IMG/VR virus record: IMGVR_UViG_3300025887_000126
Span: 1 to 26,382 of that record
Origin: a virus
Reading direction: 5' to 3' (one strand)
DNA length: 26,382 nucleotides
Position numbers and translations under genes: made by a program. This document shows, piece after piece, positions 16,117 through 26,382 of the stretch (its first letter is position 1; every line of letters begins with the position of its first letter). The notes under the pieces are model-generated. The model saw nothing but the letters and a program-made list of their open reading frames with translations, ran no database searches and was not told where the DNA came from.

Positions 16117-18231
16117 ATGGCTCGCCTCACTATTGAACAAATCAAGGCACCAGATCTTTCGGTGGCTTCTCAGGCAACTGCTCGTGCAGGGGAGGCGTTT
16201 CGTAAAGGTATGTCTTCTGCATCGGATCTCCTGTCTCAATACCAATCTGGTCTTGAGACACAGGGTGATGCTGAACTGACCAACCTGCTGGCTGGTGCAA
16301 AGAATGAAGACGAATGGAACTCCATTCTGGCTTCGACTGACTTCAGCAAGATGAACATCTCTGCTGGAATGCGTCAGAATATCATGAACCGTCGAGACAA
16401 TATTCTGGGGTATGAGAACAAGCGTGCTGACACTCGTTTGGTTGATGCCAACACCGGCAACGTCAATGCTACTACTGCTCGGACACGGAATGCGACCGGC
16501 ATTGACACGAACCAAGACAATCGAGCTGGTGAGCTGCATGGTGTCACCATGGCTGATCACAATTGGCGTCAAGGTGCTCGTGCAGAGGATGCTTCTTTGG
16601 CAGGGGCTGCTCTTCGTGCTGCTGAGGAAAGTGTGACCAATGGTTATGACCAACCTGGGGTAGGCGGCCCGGTCAGTGGTCAAAGCTCTGGTGCTGCTGC
16701 TGTCACTCCAGGGACCAATACTGGTCCTCGTGCAGATGGTTCAGGTATTTCTGTTCCAAATTCTCGTCCCGCAATTCAAGCGAACAACGATGATGTCCTC
16801 ATGTTGGCTCGTACTCTGCAAGCTGAGGCTGGGAACCAAGGTCGTGAAGGCATGTTGGATGTCGGATCTGTCATTGCCAATCGTGTGGGTGACTCCCGTT
16901 ATGGTGATGGGACTATCCGTGGTGTTGTCATGCGTCGTGGTCAGTTCTCTGCTTGGAATGGGGAGACTGGACATGCTGGTGGTGAGCAAGGCCAGAACAT
17001 GAACTTCCAACCCAATGCAGATGCTATGGCTGCTGCTCAGGCCATCATCTCTGGGAATTATAAAGACCGGACAAATGGGGCAACCCACTATGTGAACAAG
17101 AACATCTCCAACCCTAGTTGGGGGAACAATGTTACATATCAGCGTGGAGATCACTGGTTTGGGCAAGCTGATGGGCCGGGCAATGGTCAACGTCCTACAC
17201 CTCCTGCTGGTGGACCTCAGCCTCGTCAACGTGTAACTCAGAACCCGAACCAAGGTGGTCCAGCTCAACAGGCTTATCTAGGTGCTCTGGCAAACTCTCA
17301 GTATCAATCGACTGCTGATGTTTTAGCTGCGTACCAGAACCAGTACGACTACAATGAGACTGGTCAAGCTGCCATCACTCTTGCTGACAACAAGTTGGCT
17401 GAAGAAGCACTGGCCCAACAGATGCTGGATATTGCAGCAACGAACGTTGATCCCACTGAGGCAGTGGTTCAGTTCCGGAATGAGAACCCCGGTGCAACTG
17501 CTGTCGAACGTCTTCAGTTTGAGGCTGATGTTCTGGAAGCCACAGGTGATGGTGGTGCTCTGAGTGCTGCTCGTCTCCAGATCGGTACGACTGGTGCTTC
17601 TCCCAATGACATTGGCATTGCTGATGCAGCACTGGCTGACATCTCTGAGCGTCAACAACGAGACCGATTCCAAGTGGCTCAGAATGGTGCTGGTGAATTC
17701 ACTTCTGATCCTGCCGGGATGATGACATCTGCTCTGAAAGGTCTGGGGATTTCGACCACACCTTCGGATGTGGAGTCTGCCATCAACTCTCTGGCAGAAT
17801 CTCAAGGGATTACCCGTGCTGAAGCTGCATATTCCTATGCTCGTGCTGCTGAAGAAGAAACTCGTCTGGGACGTGCTCTCTCCATCGGTGGTGACAACCT
17901 GAGCAACTGGGGTGCTGAACGTTTTGCCCAAGAGCACTTCAAAGGGGAGAATGCTGCAATAGCTCGTGCTGCTTTGGCTGATGACCGTCGAGTTGCTGAA
18001 CGCATCCAGACTGCCACAAGCAATCTTGGACGGATTGAACGGAAGATCCAGAAGCTCCGTCAACAAGGTGAGACAGTTCCTGTTGACTTGGTTTCTCAAC
18101 GTGATGAGGCACGTCGTGCTGTTGAAGGTTTCTATGAGCAATATGGGAACCGTGGACAGACTGATACCCCTCCTCCAGCCGGTGGTGCGAACCCCGGAGC
18201 ACGGATTGAGCAATCTCTCCGTGACGGCTAA
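16117..18231 (+). CDS. Virion protein with SleB-like cell-wall hydrolase domain (N4 gp51 position)
   Basis: This is a 704-residue protein. The N-terminal 200 residues are helical and polar, followed by a Gly/Pro/Ser-rich linker. Residues about 220-355 look like a Hydrolase_2/SleB-type peptidoglycan lyase: DDVLMLARTLQAEAGNQG with probable catalytic Glu237, GMLDVGSVIANRV, VVMRRGQFSAW, MAAAQAIISGNY and the late GATHYVN...HWFGQ block. A second Pro-rich linker and a long helical Ala/Glu-rich C-terminal half follow. The position just before vRNAP marks it as a candidate internal or ejected protein, and the enzyme domain would open the cell wall for DNA and polymerase entry. This is separate from the lysis amidase. 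The domain call comes from motif reading; the ejection role is inferred. Confidence 0.72.
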   Translation: MARLTIEQIKAPDLSVASQATARAGEAFRKGMSSASDLLSQYQSGLETQGDAELTNLLAGAKNEDEWNSILASTDFSKMNISAGMRQNIMNRRDNILGYENKRADTRLVDANTGNVNATTARTRNATGIDTNQDNRAGELHGVTMADHNWRQGARAEDASLAGAALRAAEESVTNGYDQPGVGGPVSGQSSGAAAVTPGTNTGPRADGSGISVPNSRPAIQANNDDVLMLARTLQAEAGNQGREGMLDVGSVIANRVGDSRYGDGTIRGVVMRRGQFSAWNGETGHAGGEQGQNMNFQPNADAMAAAQAIISGNYKDRTNGATHYVNKNISNPSWGNNVTYQRGDHWFGQADGPGNGQRPTPPAGGPQPRQRVTQNPNQGGPAQQAYLGALANSQYQSTADVLAAYQNQYDYNETGQAAITLADNKLAEEALAQQMLDIAATNVDPTEAVVQFRNENPGATAVERLQFEADVLEATGDGGALSAARLQIGTTGASPNDIGIADAALADISERQQRDRFQVAQNGAGEFTSDPAGMMTSALKGLGISTTPSDVESAINSLAESQGITRAEAAYSYARAAEEETRLGRALSIGGDNLSNWGAERFAQEHFKGENAAIARAALADDRRVAERIQTATSNLGRIERKIQKLRQQGETVPVDLVSQRDEARRAVEGFYEQYGNRGQTDTPPPAGGANPGARIEQSLRDG

Positions 18232-18302: not shown

Positions 18303-21300
18303 ATGGCCAACGAATACACTCCCGTTTTTGATCAAGAAATGGCCCGCAAGATGGTTGTGGCCGCAAACGAGGGGAATGAGCTGGCAAACACTGAGTTTGC
18401 ACAAGACATTCAGACTGCTCCTTACGGATACCTCGTCAATAAGTACGGACAGGAAGTAGCTGACAATCGTCGGCTTTATACCCAAGAACGTGCAGCCGTT
18501 GCACAGATCGAGAACGCTGATCGAAGCAATGCACAGGTTGTGGGAGACACTGGTCTCGCTGTTGCTTCTGGTCTCGTCAACGCTGTTGGTTCTCTTGGTT
18601 CGCTGACATTGGCTGCTGCTGGTGAAACTGACCAATACTTCGACGAAGAGAATGATGGATTCTCCCGTGCAGGTGTTTGGGTCTCTGAGAAGACACAGCA
18701 AGCAACTCAGTGGATCAAGAGCTTCCAGTCTGATGAGCTTCAGGATCGTCAGGGTCTGTCTGGTGTTGAGCGTCAACTGGATGCTCAAGATAACCTCGAT
18801 CAATTCAACCGTGAAACCAACAATGGTGAGGATGCTTCCTTCATCGACGATTTGACATGGGTTGGTCGTGGTACTTTGAATAACCTTGGTCGGGTTGGAT
18901 CTAATGCTGCTATCGCAGGTGATGTGATTGCTGAGGGTCTTGGTTCATTGGGACCAAGTGCCAAACTGGCTTCGGTCGCTTCGGGCCTTGTGACACGCAC
19001 TGCAACGTACAACGCTGCAAAGATCGCAAATGCCATTGCTCCCACACAGGGAACGAAGTTCCTTGCTATGGGTGCTGAGGGTGTGAACCGTGCTGCAATC
19101 GCTTCTGCTGTTGGTGTTTCTGAGGCTGCTGGAGTCTATTCTCAGACTGTCAACGAAGTTCTGGGGATGAAGCATGGCGAGCTGATGGAGACATCTGAGG
19201 AATACGCCACGATGGTTGGTCAGGGTGTGGATCCTGATGATGCTAAGACAACTCTGGCTGCCAATGCCGGTATCGACGCTTTCAAGACATCTTTCCCGAT
19301 GGCTGCCAGCTTGGGTATCATCGCTGGTAGATTTGAAGCCATGCCAATAAAATCCTTCCGTGGTTCAGGTTTCATCGGTGGACTGCGTCAAGTTGGTGCT
19401 CAAACTCTAGAAGAAGGTGGTCAGGGTGCCTCTGGCCAACTGGCAACGAACCTTGCCATTCGTGACACAGGTGTGGATCCCAACCGTACTCCCGGAGAGG
19501 GTGTAGATGAGGCTCTGGCGACTGGTATGATCGCCGGTACAGGTATGGCTGGTGTACTCGCAGCTCCTTCTGCTCTCGGAGAAGCTCCTCGTAAAATCAC
19601 TGAAACCACAAAAGCTGTTGTTAACTCACCTGCTATAAAAGGTGCAGTATCGGCTGTTGGCAGTGCTGTCACTGCTGGTGGGAGTGCTCTGGATGCTGCT
19701 GCTAAAAACCTTGAGAACAGCCCTCAAGCAATGGCAGCACTGAGAGGTGTTCGTGCTGCTGGAGCAAAAGTCACTGAAAAAGTAACTCCTGTTGCAGATG
19801 CTGTGGTTAATCAAGCAAAGGATTTCAACACTCGTCCTGATCGAGATGCTCAGTCAAAAACACTCGCAGCATTAAGTGAGATTACTGAGCTGTCTGTGGT
19901 AGAGTTGACTACAAAGATTGATGGGAACCAGTCAGATAAAGAGCTTAATCTTGAGTTGGCTCGCAAATCTGCTGTTCAATCTATTGCACGCAACGAGGCT
20001 TCCGGTTCAGTTCCTTCAACATTCTCCAACACAACGACTGGTAACACTACACTGGCTCGTGTCGGTGGGATCATCTCCAAGCTGAGTGAGAAGGGTGTTC
20101 GCATCAACAAGATGAGCGATAGCGACGTTCTCTATGCCGCATCTGAGATACAAAACCTTCGCAGTTCGATTACAAACCTTCCCACTGCAATGCGGGCCAA
20201 GGTCAAGGACATCATTGCTTCTGAAGATTTCAAGAACATCCAGAAGCGTGTCACACGTATTGATCTGATGAAGACACAGGATGAAACCAAAGCAGTGACT
20301 GATGACATGGTCACAGAGACCAAACTGGTTGCTGCTGTGAACCCTGCCAACATCAATCCGGTGGTTGCTGGGAAGATTCTGGAACAGAATGATCGTACTG
20401 ATGTGACTCCACAGGACATCCAGAACCTGAAGACTGCCAAGCGTATCGGTGAGGCAATCACTTCTCGTTCTGAAGCCTATGTCGAGGCACAGAAGAAGGA
20501 AGTGGTCGAGCTGTCTGTGAAGCCTGAGTATCGTGAGGGCAAGAAGCAGACCAAGCCGGTCGATCTGGTCGAGGCAATCTCTCGCAATATCTTCCTTGGT
20601 TCAGGAGACACTCGTGCTCCGTCTGTGGGGCAGTTCGCTTCTCAAATCATGCAAGGTGCTCAGAACCCAGATGGGACTGTCGAGATCGACGGTATCCCAA
20701 CTGATGTGAATGCTGTCACAGATCACTTCACGAACTTTGCACAGCATATGATCAACAAGGTCGATGCTCTCAACCGGTCGTTTGCAAACCGTGATGCCAA
20801 TGGCAACGGTACTGCTGAGTCGTTTGACAACCTTGGCCCTAACCGGAAGATCCGTCCGGGGCGTACTGAGAATGGTGCTGTGCAAGGCAAGGCTGTCACC
20901 TATCAAGGTGCTTCTCCTGGTGGTATCCGCTTTGCTGATGAGATGTATGCTGACGCAGTGGCTGCTGTGGAGGTCTACAATGCTCTGGTTGAAGCCTTCC
21001 CTGAGCGTTTCCCTGCTGGAGTGCTTAGTGTCCCAGATTTCGCTCCAAATGCGACACAAAGTCCTTTGAGTGACACAAGTGATCCACAAACTGATGTGGC
21101 TGAAGTCGAGACCGAAGCGGCCCCAACGGCTGTCGAAGAGGTTTCTGCGCCAGCAGAAACCGATGAGCAGGACGCAGAGGTCACTCCTCCTACTCTTGCC
21201 GAGATGATGGCTGCTGAAACTCGCACCAAAGATGACTTCAGTGCAATGAGCTATGAGGATCTGATCGAGTCTGCAAACCGTTGGTTTGTGGAAGAAGAAG

Positions 21301-24300
21301 GTATGGGTCTGGAAGCAATGCCAGAAGCTCGTCAGACTGTGATCAAAGAGTACACTGACTCGATCATTGCCTACTTCAATCTGCCTACAAACTTGGTCAC
21401 TGGTATCACTTGGCTCCGTACTCCGGATGCTGGTCACATGGGTCAAGCCATGTGGGGTGAGCGTCTGATTGCAATGCGTGCCGGGGCTGTTCGTTCTCTC
21501 CTTGGCCCCAATGATACTGAGGGTTTCCGCACTGCTGAACACACAGTCTTCCATGAGCTGATGCACATCATTGATGCGTATGCCTCGAACGATGTCACTC
21601 GCCCTGTATCTCACAGCTCCAAGCTGTTTGATACGATCACAGGTGAAGAGGGTGCCATCTACAAAGAGGTGGTTGCTGCTGTCGATTCTGATCCAGAGAT
21701 GAAGACACACTTCGACTATGCTCTGTCGTACAACAACATCGACACACTGGATGCCTTGGCCTCTGAGATCTTTGCTGAGATTGGTGCACTCTATCTGAGG
21801 AACACTGATCTGGCTCGTGAAAAATTCCCTGAAGGAGTGAAATATGTCGAAAACATCATCGAACAAGCAGGAGGCACAATCGTCGGTGAAGCCACCGATG
21901 GAAGTGCCACACAAGAGTCCAGTGGTGAAGAAAACGTTTCCACCAAAACGTCCGTGGCAGACAAAACCTTTGACAACGTCAGTCCCCAGTTCAACGAATC
22001 CTTCCTGAAACGGAAGGGTGAGTTCTCCTACGCTGATGGTGATGGGATCCTGGCCATGGTTGAAGCTCAACCAGGGACTAAAAATTATGTCGAGTTTGTC
22101 CGTCTGTACAAAGACCGGGTCATCGCTGAAGCCAACAATCGTCTGGCCACACTGAAGGTGAACAAGTCCAAGAAGGACGAGCTGCCTATCAAGGACCGGA
22201 TCATTGCTGGTGACGAAGAGGTGGGCCTCTACCGTCGGAACAAGAACACGATCGCTGTTGACCGTACCACAGGTGAATACGATCCAGATCTCCTGTCGAT
22301 CGCTGCTGTTGCAGTTCTCGATTGGCTCACTGGTGCTCGCTCTCAGAACATCAAGAACCTGGATGAGACCCTGGAAGACATGAACCTGACCTATGACATG
22401 GTCACAGATGATCAGATCAACACGATCATGAATGGGATCAACCCTCGTGATGCTGCTGAGACCCTGGCCAAGGACATCGTCCGTATGTGGGGTCTCCGTA
22501 TCAATCCGGCTGCTCCTATGGTTGATGCCCGTGGTGCTGCTGAAGGTATGGCTAAAGAGCTGCTGGAAGCTCTCCTCACAGTGAGTGAGCAAGAAGTGGC
22601 TGCCAACCGTCAGGCTCTGATCGGTCGTAAGATCGTTCCGTATGTGGACCCAGAGAATGCTGAGGCACAGCGTCAAGAGATGATTGCCAAAGCAGAAGCT
22701 GATGAGATTGATCCAAACACAGTGATCTTCAAAGTGAAGCCTGTTGATCAGATCATCTTCGATACGTCTGTCATGCGTGAATTCCAGCAAGCCATTGGTT
22801 TGACTGGACAAGAAGCGTCTAAGAAGATGCTGGCTCCTGAGCTGGATACCATGCCTTCGATCGGTGCTCCTGCACGGTCGATCGACAACACCCAGTCTCG
22901 TGGTGATGTGAAGCTCTCTCGTCGTGAGAAGAAGACGCTTGAGCGTATGCAGAACCAAGGTCATGGACTGAACGTTGAGTTCTCTGGGATGGTCGATGTG
23001 GTTGGTCAGGAAGTTCTGGCCAAGTTCCTCGGTGAGAAGGACTTCAGCGAATTGAGTGATCGTCATCCAGTGCGTGCGTCGATCGCTGGTAAGAACCTGT
23101 CGATCGAGCGTGACTTCCAAGAAGCCATGAGTGTGATCAATGGTGTGAAGAATGCTGGGTTCACCGTGAATGGTGGACTGCCACAGGTATTCTACCGTGT
23201 GGGCATCTCTCGTGTTGGTCGTCACCAGTTCAAAGGGATCAACCCTCAGAACAACAAGATCCTTCGTGCTCTTGTGACACCAACTAAGTCTTTGTTGAAC
23301 ATGGATAAAAAGCGTCACAAGGATGCTTTCTGGCTGACAGTTGCTCAGGCTGCTGACATCTCTGGTTTCAACAAAGTGGAAAACCAACATCACAAGTATC
23401 TGTTGGAGAATATCCAACGTGAATTCTACGCCAAGTATGGCGAAGCTGTTGAAATGATTGGTGAACATCTGGAAGGTAGAGATCTCGATGGTGCTGCTCT
23501 GGTGGAAGCCATGGGTGGAACCGGTGAGATGCAGCAATTGGCTGCTGTCTTTGCCGTGGCTCAACTGGAGAAGGCTCTTCTGGATGGTACACAAGGTGCT
23601 TTCGAGACCACTCTCTCTTTCGAGCTGGATGGTAAGACCGATGGTCCCGGCAACATGATGGCTAACTTCGGACAGGGTATCCTGACCGAACAGGACTTCA
23701 TGAACTTCAAGCGTGTTGGTTTCTTCCTCGGAACCAAGAACATGACTCTGAACAAGTTCTTCGGAAATGGCACTGAGCGTGACCTCTATGAGGTGACATC
23801 GCTCAAGGGTCAGATGGCTCTGCACAATGCAATCTCGAATGGGAAATTCTCTGACAAGGCCAAGTTCCATGCCATTGCAAATCTGGCTTCTGCCTTTGGT
23901 GATCTGAAGATCGAGAATGGGCAGTTTGTCCTCACTCGTAATGCCTCGAAGAACCCGATGACCAAGACGGTCTACGGCTCTTCTGAGCGTGGTATCGGTG
24001 TGGGTCTGGCTCAGGACATGATGCTCAAGATGTACCAAGCCCTGATCGACAATCCTGATGGGATCGTGGATTACCCCGGTGGCAAGGAAGGCTTTGAAGC
24101 TGATTTCTCTACGGCTTTCGGGATGAAGTTCCCCACAGGCCGTAACTGGAAGAAGGACTATCTGGGCCAGAATGAAGTGGACAACTTCACGAAGGCTGTG
24201 ACCCAGACTCTGGGCAAGGTTCTCTCTGACACTGCCAAGGAAGTCATCGGTGATGAGATCACGAAGGTGAATGACACCTTGGTTCTGATGACTGCTTTCC

Positions 24301-26382
24301 AGACAGAATTCCTGACTGCGAAGTTCCGGGAACTGCTGGATGCCAAGGTTGCAGAGCGTGTCGCTGATGGTTCGATCAAGGTGAATGAGCGGACAGGTGT
24401 TCCTGATCGTTCATCCCTGACACAGGCTGACTATGATGCTGTGGTGGCTCAGATCCGTGCGTACAGCCCGACGTATGCCAACGGTATGCAGACGCTCGAC
24501 ATCGGCTCTCTGGGTGCCACAAACAGCGGTATCCGTCTGTCTGAGTCCATGACTGGCACTTTCCAGGCTCCATCGACGATGGTGTCTCCTGAGCTGGCCG
24601 GAGTGAAAGTCATCCCGTACATCACACAGGGTCGTGGTGATGCCATGATGATGAACTGGATCTACGGTGGGGAGACTGCTCCGGAGAATACCCTTCAGGT
24701 GTTTGATGGTATCGACATGCCTATCGACAAGATCTTTGAATACGCTCAACAGATCAACTCTGCTGTTCTCCAGAACTGGGAAGCAGATGTGATCGGTGAC
24801 ATCGTGAATGATGTGACAGGCTTCCTTGAGAAGACTACCAATGATGGGGATCTACTACTGAATGCTTGGACTCGTGCATTTGAGAGTGCTCAGAAGAAAA
24901 AGACCACAGCAACTGCAAAGACTCCTCAAGCGCTGATCGGTGATGTGAACGAGATGCAGCGTCGGAACCAAGCTCGTAAGGCTGTCTTCAAGCGAATTGG
25001 AGTCTCTGTCGATCACATGGGTGGTTCGGACACAGCCTTCACACAAGGGCCGGATGGTCGTGATTACACACTGGGTGAGATCAACGACATGATCCGTAAG
25101 GAATTGGGGGAACGTGCTCTTCAGAACCAGAACGATCAGACTGTGGACCCTGATGGGTCCATCGACGGTGAATTCACTGAGATCAATCTGGATGCTTTCC
25201 AGATCGAAGATCAACGTGCTCCTGTTGAAGGTGAGTTCTCCAAGCTGGTGGTCACTGATGCTGCAACAGTTATGGACAGTCTGCTCCGTGAAACTCGGAA
25301 CAAGCCTGTGGCTGCTGCTGTTCGGATCCTCCAGAAGGCAAACCTCCAGACTCGTATCGTCATTGGTTCTCCTGAAGAGGTGAGCCAGTGGTACTCGGAC
25401 AACATCGGTGAGATGGACGGTGGCCTGAAGCAGGACAAGAAGGGTATTTATGACCCGGTGAACGATGTCATGCTGATCACTGACAACAACCATGAGACCA
25501 TGGTTCATGAGCTGATCCATGCTGCGACGTTCAAGATCGTTGAAGCGTTCTACAATGGAGATCAAACCCACAAGGATACGATTGGTCGTCTGGAAGTGCT
25601 GAACCAAGAATTCCTCGACATGGACTTCAGCAATGCACCTCAGTCGGTGCAGGACAGTGCCAACAGTGCAAAGTCTCAGATCCTATCTCTTCAAGTAGAA
25701 GACACAGCTTTCTCGAAGGCTGCTGCTCTGAATGAGATGATGGCATGGACCCTCAGCAATGAAGGTCTGATGAAGGAACTGGGTCAGAAGCAGACAAGCC
25801 TGATGGCTCGCATGACCAAGGTTCTGAAGGCTCTCATGCAGCGTCTGCTGGGTGGGGTGAAGTCAGATATGCTGTCTAACATCCAATTCAACACCGAGTT
25901 GTTGATCATTCCATCGGAGACTCTGGCTCTGCCAGCTCCTGTGGAAGACACGCTAGATGAGCTGACACCCGGTGCTCAGAAGATGACGAACTTCTGGATC
26001 GACTTGGCCGAGCAACGTCTTGATGAAGCTGTGAAATCCACTGGTCGTGTGTCCGAAAAAGTGACACAAATTTCGGACTACCGGAAGAACGCACAGAGTG
26101 CGATTGATACTCTGACCTTCGGTGGGTTCACTCTCTCTGCATACCAGCGTGAGACGTTCAAAGCGATCCACATGGTTCTGGCCATGGAGATGCGTCTGAA
26201 CCCTCAGAGTGCTGCTGCGTTGAACGATATGTTCAAGCATGTGACAGACAACCTGACACCTGCTATGTTCGGCCCCACAAATGAACAGGACCGTTATTCT
26301 GCGGTCATGGAAATCTTCGGAGAAACCAAAAATGATGAAGGTGTATCAGATGCAATTGCTGTTCTTCTGGCTCTCAGCCAAA
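18303..26382 (+). CDS. Virion-encapsulated RNA polymerase (N4 gp50-like), giant protein flanked by metallopeptidase signatures; 3' end outside window
   Basis: The frame is open from ATG 18303 (AAGGA at 18290-18294) to the window edge: 2693 codons, no stop. N4 vRNAP has about 3500 residues. The single-subunit polymerase core is readable: TxxGR-like SRVGR ending at Arg1640 and followed by the T7-like INPQNNK; motif A Asp1776 in ELDGKTDGP; motif B Arg1879, Lys1883, Tyr1891-Gly1892 with T7/N4 spacing; motif C Asp2135 in VFDGID. Arg1640-Asp1776 and Asp1776-Arg1879 distances nearly equal those of N4. The protein is packaged, injected and transcribes early genes. Residues 1-450 are Ala/Gly-rich with hydrophobic patches. 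A Pro/acidic linker (908-970) precedes zincin signature HELMH (1084-1088, Glu1155); a Ser/Thr/Glu linker lies at 1190-1226. A second signature, HELIH (2402-2406, Glu2478), follows the polymerase core. Ser replaces Thr/Asp in TxxGR. Confidence 0.92.
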   Translation, partial: MANEYTPVFDQEMARKMVVAANEGNELANTEFAQDIQTAPYGYLVNKYGQEVADNRRLYTQERAAVAQIENADRSNAQVVGDTGLAVASGLVNAVGSLGSLTLAAAGETDQYFDEENDGFSRAGVWVSEKTQQATQWIKSFQSDELQDRQGLSGVERQLDAQDNLDQFNRETNNGEDASFIDDLTWVGRGTLNNLGRVGSNAAIAGDVIAEGLGSLGPSAKLASVASGLVTRTATYNAAKIANAIAPTQGTKFLAMGAEGVNRAAIASAVGVSEAAGVYSQTVNEVLGMKHGELMETSEEYATMVGQGVDPDDAKTTLAANAGIDAFKTSFPMAASLGIIAGRFEAMPIKSFRGSGFIGGLRQVGAQTLEEGGQGASGQLATNLAIRDTGVDPNRTPGEGVDEALATGMIAGTGMAGVLAAPSALGEAPRKITETTKAVVNSPAIKGAVSAVGSAVTAGGSALDAAAKNLENSPQAMAALRGVRAAGAKVTEKVTPVADAVVNQAKDFNTRPDRDAQSKTLAALSEITELSVVELTTKIDGNQSDKELNLELARKSAVQSIARNEASGSVPSTFSNTTTGNTTLARVGGIISKLSEKGVRINKMSDSDVLYAASEIQNLRSSITNLPTAMRAKVKDIIASEDFKNIQKRVTRIDLMKTQDETKAVTDDMVTETKLVAAVNPANINPVVAGKILEQNDRTDVTPQDIQNLKTAKRIGEAITSRSEAYVEAQKKEVVELSVKPEYREGKKQTKPVDLVEAISRNIFLGSGDTRAPSVGQFASQIMQGAQNPDGTVEIDGIPTDVNAVTDHFTNFAQHMINKVDALNRSFANRDANGNGTAESFDNLGPNRKIRPGRTENGAVQGKAVTYQGASPGGIRFADEMYADAVAAVEVYNALVEAFPERFPAGVLSVPDFAPNATQSPLSDTSDPQTDVAEVETEAAPTAVEEVSAPAETDEQDAEVTPPTLAEMMAAETRTKDDFSAMSYEDLIESANRWFVEEEGMGLEAMPEARQTVIKEYTDSIIAYFNLPTNLVTGITWLRTPDAGHMGQAMWGERLIAMRAGAVRSLLGPNDTEGFRTAEHTVFHELMHIIDAYASNDVTRPVSHSSKLFDTITGEEGAIYKEVVAAVDSDPEMKTHFDYALSYNNIDTLDALASEIFAEIGALYLRNTDLAREKFPEGVKYVENIIEQAGGTIVGEATDGSATQESSGEENVSTKTSVADKTFDNVSPQFNESFLKRKGEFSYADGDGILAMVEAQPGTKNYVEFVRLYKDRVIAEANNRLATLKVNKSKKDELPIKDRIIAGDEEVGLYRRNKNTIAVDRTTGEYDPDLLSIAAVAVLDWLTGARSQNIKNLDETLEDMNLTYDMVTDDQINTIMNGINPRDAAETLAKDIVRMWGLRINPAAPMVDARGAAEGMAKELLEALLTVSEQEVAANRQALIGRKIVPYVDPENAEAQRQEMIAKAEADEIDPNTVIFKVKPVDQIIFDTSVMREFQQAIGLTGQEASKKMLAPELDTMPSIGAPARSIDNTQSRGDVKLSRREKKTLERMQNQGHGLNVEFSGMVDVVGQEVLAKFLGEKDFSELSDRHPVRASIAGKNLSIERDFQEAMSVINGVKNAGFTVNGGLPQVFYRVGISRVGRHQFKGINPQNNKILRALVTPTKSLLNMDKKRHKDAFWLTVAQAADISGFNKVENQHHKYLLENIQREFYAKYGEAVEMIGEHLEGRDLDGAALVEAMGGTGEMQQLAAVFAVAQLEKALLDGTQGAFETTLSFELDGKTDGPGNMMANFGQGILTEQDFMNFKRVGFFLGTKNMTLNKFFGNGTERDLYEVTSLKGQMALHNAISNGKFSDKAKFHAIANLASAFGDLKIENGQFVLTRNASKNPMTKTVYGSSERGIGVGLAQDMMLKMYQALIDNPDGIVDYPGGKEGFEADFSTAFGMKFPTGRNWKKDYLGQNEVDNFTKAVTQTLGKVLSDTAKEVIGDEITKVNDTLVLMTAFQTEFLTAKFRELLDAKVAERVADGSIKVNERTGVPDRSSLTQADYDAVVAQIRAYSPTYANGMQTLDIGSLGATNSGIRLSESMTGTFQAPSTMVSPELAGVKVIPYITQGRGDAMMMNWIYGGETAPENTLQVFDGIDMPIDKIFEYAQQINSAVLQNWEADVIGDIVNDVTGFLEKTTNDGDLLLNAWTRAFESAQKKKTTATAKTPQALIGDVNEMQRRNQARKAVFKRIGVSVDHMGGSDTAFTQGPDGRDYTLGEINDMIRKELGERALQNQNDQTVDPDGSIDGEFTEINLDAFQIEDQRAPVEGEFSKLVVTDAATVMDSLLRETRNKPVAAAVRILQKANLQTRIVIGSPEEVSQWYSDNIGEMDGGLKQDKKGIYDPVNDVMLITDNNHETMVHELIHAATFKIVEAFYNGDQTHKDTIGRLEVLNQEFLDMDFSNAPQSVQDSANSAKSQILSLQVEDTAFSKAAALNEMMAWTLSNEGLMKELGQKQTSLMARMTKVLKALMQRLLGGVKSDMLSNIQFNTELLIIPSETLALPAPVEDTLDELTPGAQKMTNFWIDLAEQRLDEAVKSTGRVSEKVTQISDYRKNAQSAIDTLTFGGFTLSAYQRETFKAIHMVLAMEMRLNPQSAAALNDMFKHVTDNLTPAMFGPTNEQDRYSAVMEIFGETKNDEGVSDAIAVLLALSQ

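What the first reader, a model, noticed from the sequence alone, without database searches (positions are those of the whole stretch)
21024..25800. Two gluzincin-type metallopeptidase signatures flank the RNA polymerase core of the vRNAP
Seen: HELMH at residues 1084-1088 with Glu1155 (in SEIFAE) 67 residues on, and HELIH at 2402-2406 with Glu2478 (in NEMMAW) 72 residues on. The second is preceded by KKGIYDPVNDVMLI, a beta-strand lead-in typical of zincins in phage polyvalent proteins. Known: HExxH plus a downstream Glu is the gluzincin zinc site, and large ejected phage proteins often carry zincin domains. Inference: one protein delivers a polymerase and two proteases. They may cut the flanking linkers (908-970, 1190-1226) to free a mini-vRNAP in the host, or may cleave host defence proteins.
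Basis: partly seen in the sequence, partly recalled or inferred. Interest (0 to 1): 0.8.

Follow-up and report, generated by a model that had tools for sequence, protein, structure and literature searches.

The report
Viral polymerase carrying two metallopeptidase domains
A giant polymerase that a marine bacterial virus injects into its host carries two separate zinc-peptidase-like domains: one is an ancestral part shared by the whole virus family and already described, the other is an optional module in a linker where related viruses carry other effector-type enzymes or nothing, so it is more likely a co-injected weapon than a self-cutting tool.

Summary
Observation confirmed. The vRNAP ORF (18303-26381, cut by the record end; 3,661 aa in a near-identical sister record) has exactly two HExxH motifs. 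H1084/E1085/H1088/E1155 are invariant in all 17 aligned N-terminal domains (NTZ). H2402/E2403/H2406/E2478 are invariant in the 66 aligned C-terminal domains (CTZ). Both give good AlphaFold models with the zincin core order.

They are different things. CTZ is the family-wide zincin of N4-like vRNAPs, published in 2017 and present in the solved N4 structure. NTZ is a separate, M90/MtfA-like family in the NTD-RNAP linker, which holds no domain in N4. In 62 non-redundant vRNAPs this linker is a variable cargo slot: NTZ in 18, ADP-ribosyltransferase in 10, a third HExxH-type domain in 3, none of these in 38. The window's three closest relatives hold NTZ, ART plus another zincin, and nothing.

Cutting linkers to free the polymerase is not supported: most vRNAPs lack NTZ, and N4 vRNAP is packaged and purified intact. 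I favour NTZ as a co-injected effector protease (moderate confidence) and CTZ as an ancestral domain of unknown substrate. One lineage has lost all three CTZ zinc ligands but keeps NTZ.

The parts
18303..26381 (+). Virion RNA polymerase (vRNAP, N4 gp50-like) ORF, 3' end cut off by the end of the record; 3,661 aa in the sister record L001
   Evidence: (phrog_2206, E=0)
18303..21017 (+). N-terminal domain (aa 1-905), equivalent of the membrane-associated NTD of N4 gp50
   Evidence: alignment to N4, PDB sequence match
21018..22007 (+). Variable cargo slot between NTD and RNAP (aa about 906-1235); in N4 a linker of about 100 aa without a domain
   Evidence: N4 linker limits from PMC12633501
21255..21872 (+). 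NTZ: N-terminal zincin domain, M90/MtfA-like (aa 985-1190)
21552..21566 (+). HELMH, aa 1084-1088 (predicted zinc ligands H1084, H1088; general base E1085)
21573..21575 (+). Asp1091, invariant Asp three residues after HExxH
21765..21767 (+). Glu1155 (SEIFAE), predicted third zinc ligand
22008..25187 (+). T7-like RNA polymerase domain (aa about 1236-2295)
   Evidence: (PF21867, PF21894, PF21769)
25188..25232 (+). Linker RNAP-CTD (aa 2296-2310), equivalent of N4 2102-2123
   Evidence: PMC12633501
25233..25934 (+). CTZ: C-terminal zincin domain (aa 2311-2544), equivalent of N4 C1 (2124-2375)
25506..25520 (+). HELIH, aa 2402-2406 (predicted zinc ligands H2402, H2406; general base E2403)
25734..25736 (+). 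Glu2478 (NEMMAW), predicted third zinc ligand
25935..26381 (+). Start of the helical C2 domain (rest lies outside the record)

Best explanation
The protein is a schitovirus virion RNA polymerase, ejected into the host with the DNA, and it carries two unrelated gluzincin-type metallopeptidase domains. Shown: sequence, conservation, position, predicted folds and the pattern of presence and absence. CTZ is the ancestral C1 zincin of N4-like vRNAPs; its near-universal catalytic residues, including the general-base Glu, suggest that it is a working peptidase, and its place next to the RNAP-CTD linker makes that linker or an envelope or host protein a possible substrate (inferred). NTZ is an optional M90/MtfA-like zincin in a swappable cargo slot of the NTD-RNAP linker. 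Inferred: NTZ rides in with the polymerase and acts on a host protein at the very start of infection, as proposed for the ADP-ribosyltransferase that other phages carry in the same slot. It need not release the polymerase, since relatives do without it.
For: Domain identity: invariant HExxHxxD...E...E in 17 NTZ and HExxH...E in 66 CTZ. A model built only from other phages' NTZ finds the window's at 81.6 bits, E 3e-25. Predicted folds have a three-stranded sheet, an HExxH helix and a Glu helix, at mean pLDDT 84.6 and 94.4. Top PDB fold neighbours of NTZ are PPEP-1/Zmp1, with gluzincin aminopeptidases and selecase below; those of CTZ are N4 vRNAP C1, then lethal-factor-type zincins, though the hits beyond N4 are weak. 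M90 family: the L044 and L056 slots score 48.0 and 44.5 bits against a cut-off of 26.2. Swappable slot: lengths 144-798 aa; ART-PolyVal, a NADAR-like hit and a third HExxH domain found there. On the RNAP tree the presence of NTZ needs 8 changes and of ART 9. Window relatives L007, L002 and L003, in one fully supported clade, carry NTZ, ART plus another zincin, and nothing. NTZ evolves at the pace of the polymerase (66% against 65% identity to L007), so it is under constraint. NTZ and ART occur independently of each other (Fisher p=0.71).
Against: No zinc binding, proteolysis or target was shown. The window's own NTZ has no Pfam hit by itself, so the M90 link runs through relatives. Foldseek E-values for zincins other than N4 are weak (best 0.48 for NTZ, 0.14 for CTZ). 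NTZ sits beside linkers, which also fits self-processing. Sequence alignment inside the slot is loose, so slot limits are approximate to some tens of residues.
Confidence: 0.55

Rival explanations
1. Self-processing: NTZ and/or CTZ cut the flanking linkers after ejection, freeing the polymerase from the membrane-bound NTD and from the autoinhibitory CTD.
For: Both domains lie next to linkers. The CTD represses transcription in N4 and full-length vRNAP makes less RNA than the isolated RNAP domain (PMC12633501). Autoprocessing by polyvalent-protein zincins was proposed, with P1 DdrB as a processed example (PMC5512222).
Against: N4 vRNAP is packaged unprocessed (PMC5512222), and recombinant gp50 with its C1 domain showed no degradation and was solved as an RNAP-CTD complex (PMC12633501). 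44 of 62 vRNAPs lack NTZ. In L049/L050 the CTZ has lost its zinc ligands, so at least CTZ cutting is not essential there.
Confidence: 0.25
2. CTZ (and perhaps NTZ) is no longer a peptidase: the HExxH site is kept for structure, packaging or polymerase regulation, or works as a different metalloenzyme such as an alphaKG-HExxH hydroxylase.
For: The region with the zincin is needed for encapsidation (PMC5512222). C1 touches the RNAP and a clasp to it was seen (PMC12633501), where HExxH of other enzyme types is also mentioned. L049/L050 keep the C1 helices without the zinc site.
Against: The general-base Glu as well as both His and the third Glu are invariant in 66 sequences down to about 23% identity, more than a structural metal needs. 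Fold neighbours are mostly peptidases.
Confidence: 0.15
3. The two HExxH motifs are chance matches without zincin domains.
For: HExxH is a short motif; Pfam does not recognise either domain of the window alone.
Against: Shuffles give 0.018 motifs per protein; invariance in 17 and 66 relatives; predicted zincin core order; N4 C1 homology at E 1e-59.
Confidence: 0.02

Closest known systems
Zincin-like MPTase (C1) domain of phage N4 virion RNA polymerase gp50 (Iyer 2017, PMC5512222; cryo-EM PMC12633501, PDB 9pnr/9pnt)
   Same: CTZ is its direct equivalent: same position after the RNAP-CTD linker, same HExxH and downstream Glu, profile match E 1e-59, best fold match.
   Different: Only sequence divergence (about 30% identity). 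N4 has no counterpart of NTZ.
Two-zincin vRNAPs of Rhodovirinae roseophages (for example Roseovarius Plymouth podovirus 1, EE36phi1, R2C, R7L)
   Same: Same architecture NTD - (ART) - NTZ - RNAP - CTZ - C2; homologous NTZ. [quoted passage not shown]
   Different: The window's NTZ is only 17-20% identical to theirs, and the window has no ART.
Peptidase M90 (MtfA, Mlc titration factor A) and lethal-factor-like PPEP-1/Zmp1
   Same: HExxHxxD plus ExFA helix; relatives of NTZ pass the M90 cut-off, and their model aligns with E. coli MtfA; PPEP-1 is the top PDB fold neighbour.
   Different: The window's NTZ itself does not reach the M90 cut-off; the match covers only the C-terminal catalytic part of MtfA; and it sits inside a phage ejection protein.
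ART-PolyVal ADP-ribosyltransferases of polyvalent phage proteins
   Same: Found in the same slot of the same protein in relatives.
   Different: A different enzyme; not present in the window.

Membership tests
Schitoviridae virion RNA polymerase | Giant ORF matching the vRNAP family over its length, with vRNAP polymerase domains | tested here: met
   phrog_2206 E=0 over 19-2693; PF21769, PF21894, PF21867 above cut-off
Schitoviridae virion RNA polymerase | Downstream of gp51/gp52-like ejection protein genes in a late structural block | tested here: met
   Terminase, portal, major head and virion protein genes precede it, then three ORFs in the places of N4 gp53, gp52 and gp51 (N4 gene order); the gp53/52/51 equivalence is by position
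Zincin-like MPTase of polyvalent proteins (Iyer 2017) | HExxH helix and a Glu on the second C-terminal helix | tested here: met
   Invariant in 17 NTZ and 66 CTZ; on predicted helices
Zincin-like MPTase of polyvalent proteins (Iyer 2017) | Three-stranded sheet flanked by an N-terminal helix | tested here: met
   Strands and helices in that order in both models; predicted, not solved, for NTZ
Zincin-like MPTase of polyvalent proteins (Iyer 2017) | Zinc binding and peptidase activity | not testable with these tools
   No experiment available; not shown for N4 in the passages read
Peptidase M90 (PF06167, MtfA) | Score above Pfam's curated cut-off (26.2 bits) | tested here: not met
   Window NTZ has no hit even at E 10; relatives L044 48.0, L056 44.5 and L061 28.5 bits pass. 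Hence 'M90-like', not a member
Peptidase M90 (PF06167, MtfA) | HExxHxxD and ExFA motifs in the same order | tested here: met
   Aligned with E. coli MtfA HEVAHKLD...AECFAV through the relatives' model, 21.6 bits; the window clade's own model gives only -1.1 bits

The most novel reading that the evidence does not exclude
Schitoviruses use the NTD-RNAP linker of the virion polymerase as an exchangeable warhead bay, delivering different host-directed enzymes (M90-like protease, ADP-ribosyltransferase, NADAR-like domain, a third zincin) in the same early-entering protein, with the polymerase as carrier; and NTZ can take over the job of the ancestral CTZ protease in lineages where CTZ has lost its site.
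Probability: 0.3. Interest if true: 0.75.

Novelty: new variant of a known kind. Interest (0 to 1): 0.5.

Why it matters
If NTZ is a host-directed protease, its substrate would be one of the first host proteins that a marine phage has to remove, and the slot would be a ready list of early counter-host enzymes to test. The L049/L050 lineage offers a natural experiment on what the ancestral vRNAP zincin is for, a question that the N4 cryo-EM work left open.

Tried and rejected
Duplication of one zincin: rejected, profile-profile probability 8-17% over 10-22 columns only. Host gene origin of the window's NTZ subtype: no relative found in 84,980 species genomes with the two conserved peptide patterns, and in IMG/VR only vRNAP records; this is pattern-limited, so it does not exclude distant sources. 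tblastn of the window's NTZ alone against GenBank phages found nothing. A further HExxH in L005 (HEDLH 1386) lies in the polymerase region and was set aside as chance. NTZ as a releaser of the ART cargo: the two occur independently (5 of 10 ART proteins lack NTZ, Fisher p=0.71). NCBIfam gave nothing above cut-off. Bias check: one retrieval pattern for the 80 IMG/VR loci contained HExxH, but 57 of 59 loci that carry the polymerase pattern keep the CTZ HExxH, and all 17 GenBank vRNAPs fetched do (16 from a whole-protein search, plus N4 by accession).

Full report
WHAT WAS CLAIMED. Two gluzincin signatures, HELMH 1084 with Glu1155 and HELIH 2402 with Glu2478, were said to flank the polymerase core of a virion RNA polymerase (vRNAP), perhaps to free a mini-vRNAP or to cut host proteins.

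CHECK. The ORF 18303-26381 is a schitovirus vRNAP (phrog_2206, E=0 over nearly its whole length; three vRNAP Pfam domains above cut-off). The record ends inside it (G000 is a 26,382-base virus record). A sister record, L001, differs by 1 nt over the shared vRNAP part and gives the whole protein of 3,661 aa. The two motifs are exactly where stated and are the only HExxH in it; shuffled versions hold 0.018 on average.

LAYOUT. Aligned to N4 gp50, whose domains are known from cryo-EM (PMC12633501), the window protein reads: NTD 1-905; linker region 906 to about 1235, with NTZ at about 985-1190; RNAP to 2295; linker 2296-2310; CTZ 2311-2544 (N4 C1 2124-2375); then C2. In N4 the NTD-RNAP linker is about 100 residues (907-1006) and holds no domain.

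CTZ. It is present with HExxH in every GenBank vRNAP fetched, N4 (HELVH 2228) included. In 66 aligned domains only H, E, H, Glu2478 and a Phe are invariant. The model is confident (pLDDT 94.4, pTM 0.91) and has the zincin core order. Its best fold match is N4 vRNAP (prob 1.00), followed weakly by lethal-factor-type zincins, collagenases and selecase among other hits. This domain is already in the literature: Iyer et al. [quoted passage not shown] a 2021 review (PMC8472413) and the N4 structure paper repeat it.

NTZ. Seventeen aligned domains, the window's included, share invariant H1084, E1085, H1088, D1091, E1122, E1155 and A1158. A model made only from phages outside the window's group finds the window's NTZ at 81.6 bits, E 3e-25; profile-profile probability is 99.8%. 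The predicted fold (pLDDT 84.6, pTM 0.86) has a three-stranded sheet, the HExxH helix and a later helix with Glu1155. Fold neighbours in the PDB are weak (best E 0.48), but the leading ones are PPEP-1/Zmp1, with gluzincin aminopeptidases, selecase and collagenases below; among viral models the best are large polyvalent phage proteins. Several relatives pass the Pfam cut-off for peptidase M90 (MtfA): 48.0, 44.5 and 28.5 bits against 26.2. The window's own sequence does not, so it is M90-like and not a member. NTZ and CTZ show no common sequence origin beyond the motif.

THE SLOT. Among 62 non-redundant full-length vRNAPs, the stretch between fixed anchors in NTD and RNAP runs from 144 to 798 aa. 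It holds NTZ in 18, an ART-PolyVal-type ADP-ribosyltransferase in 10 (5 of them together with NTZ), a third zincin-like domain (HELxH...ERxAN; degenerate HGLAH in one) in 3, and none of these in 38. L046 adds a NADAR-like hit below cut-off. On the RNAP tree, NTZ needs 8 changes and ART 9. The window's own clade (support 100) shows the exchange directly: L001 NTZ, L007 NTZ, L002 ART plus the third zincin type, L003 none, although their polymerase domains are 65-69% identical to the window's. NTZ evolves at the same pace as the polymerase (66% and 65% to L007).

A NATURAL KNOCKOUT. In L049 and L050 (90% identical to each other, different contigs) the CTZ sheet is deleted and the ligands are replaced: the HELVH of relatives becomes EEIIQ, and the Glu of NEFMAW becomes Ala. 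The rest of C1 and the reading frame are kept, and their NTZ is intact. CTZ catalysis is thus dispensable in one lineage. That NTZ takes over is a guess from one event; 18 of 62 proteins have NTZ anyway.

MECHANISM. Shown: two conserved zincin-type domains, one ancestral, one optional and exchangeable. Inferred: NTZ is a passenger enzyme delivered with the polymerase. Its slot-mates are enzymes thought to modify host proteins (PMC5512222), and its comings and goings do not track the polymerase's needs. Self-release of the polymerase is less likely: most relatives lack NTZ, N4 vRNAP is packaged unprocessed (PMC5512222) and recombinant gp50 showed no degradation (PMC12633501). It is not excluded, least of all for CTZ after ejection, because the N4 CTD represses the polymerase (PMC12633501) and CTZ borders the linker that would have to be cut.

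NOVELTY. CTZ is known. A vRNAP with more than one MPTase is covered in general terms by the 2017 paper; I could not see its figures, so whether NTZ was drawn in RPP1 is unknown to me. I found no paper in the open library that describes the M90-like slot domain, the exchangeable slot or the CTZ knockout, but most subscription papers are not held.

Noticed in passing
L049 aa ~2170-2320, L050 aa ~2140-2290: CTZ naturally decatalysed: beta sheet deleted, HELVH of relatives replaced by EEIIQ, zinc Glu replaced by Ala, while the N-terminal zincin is intact.
   Followed up: partly
L002 aa 1213-1357, L036 aa 1023-1167, L033 aa 1129-1269: A third, unrelated HExxH domain (HELxH...ERxAN) in the same linker slot; in L033 the motif is degenerate (HGLAH).
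   Followed up: partly
L046:5744-8083 (slot): Slot with ART-PolyVal, a NADAR-like hit (below cut-off) and NTZ in one vRNAP.
   Followed up: no
L063:5537-7933 (slot): Longest slot (798 aa) with only a weak DprA-like match (E 2e-4, below cut-off); content otherwise unknown. L077, L083 and L045 slots are also long and mostly unidentified.
   Followed up: no
window 16117-18231: The gene in the place of the gp51 ejection protein carries a cell wall hydrolase domain (PF07486, E 1.7e-19); the N4 structure paper notes that N4 ejection proteins seem to lack a peptidoglycan hydrolase.
   Followed up: no
PDB 9sfn chain G (1,337 aa internal virion protein): The CTZ profile matches this internal virion protein at E 8e-4, so a related zincin may sit in another ejection protein.
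   Followed up: no
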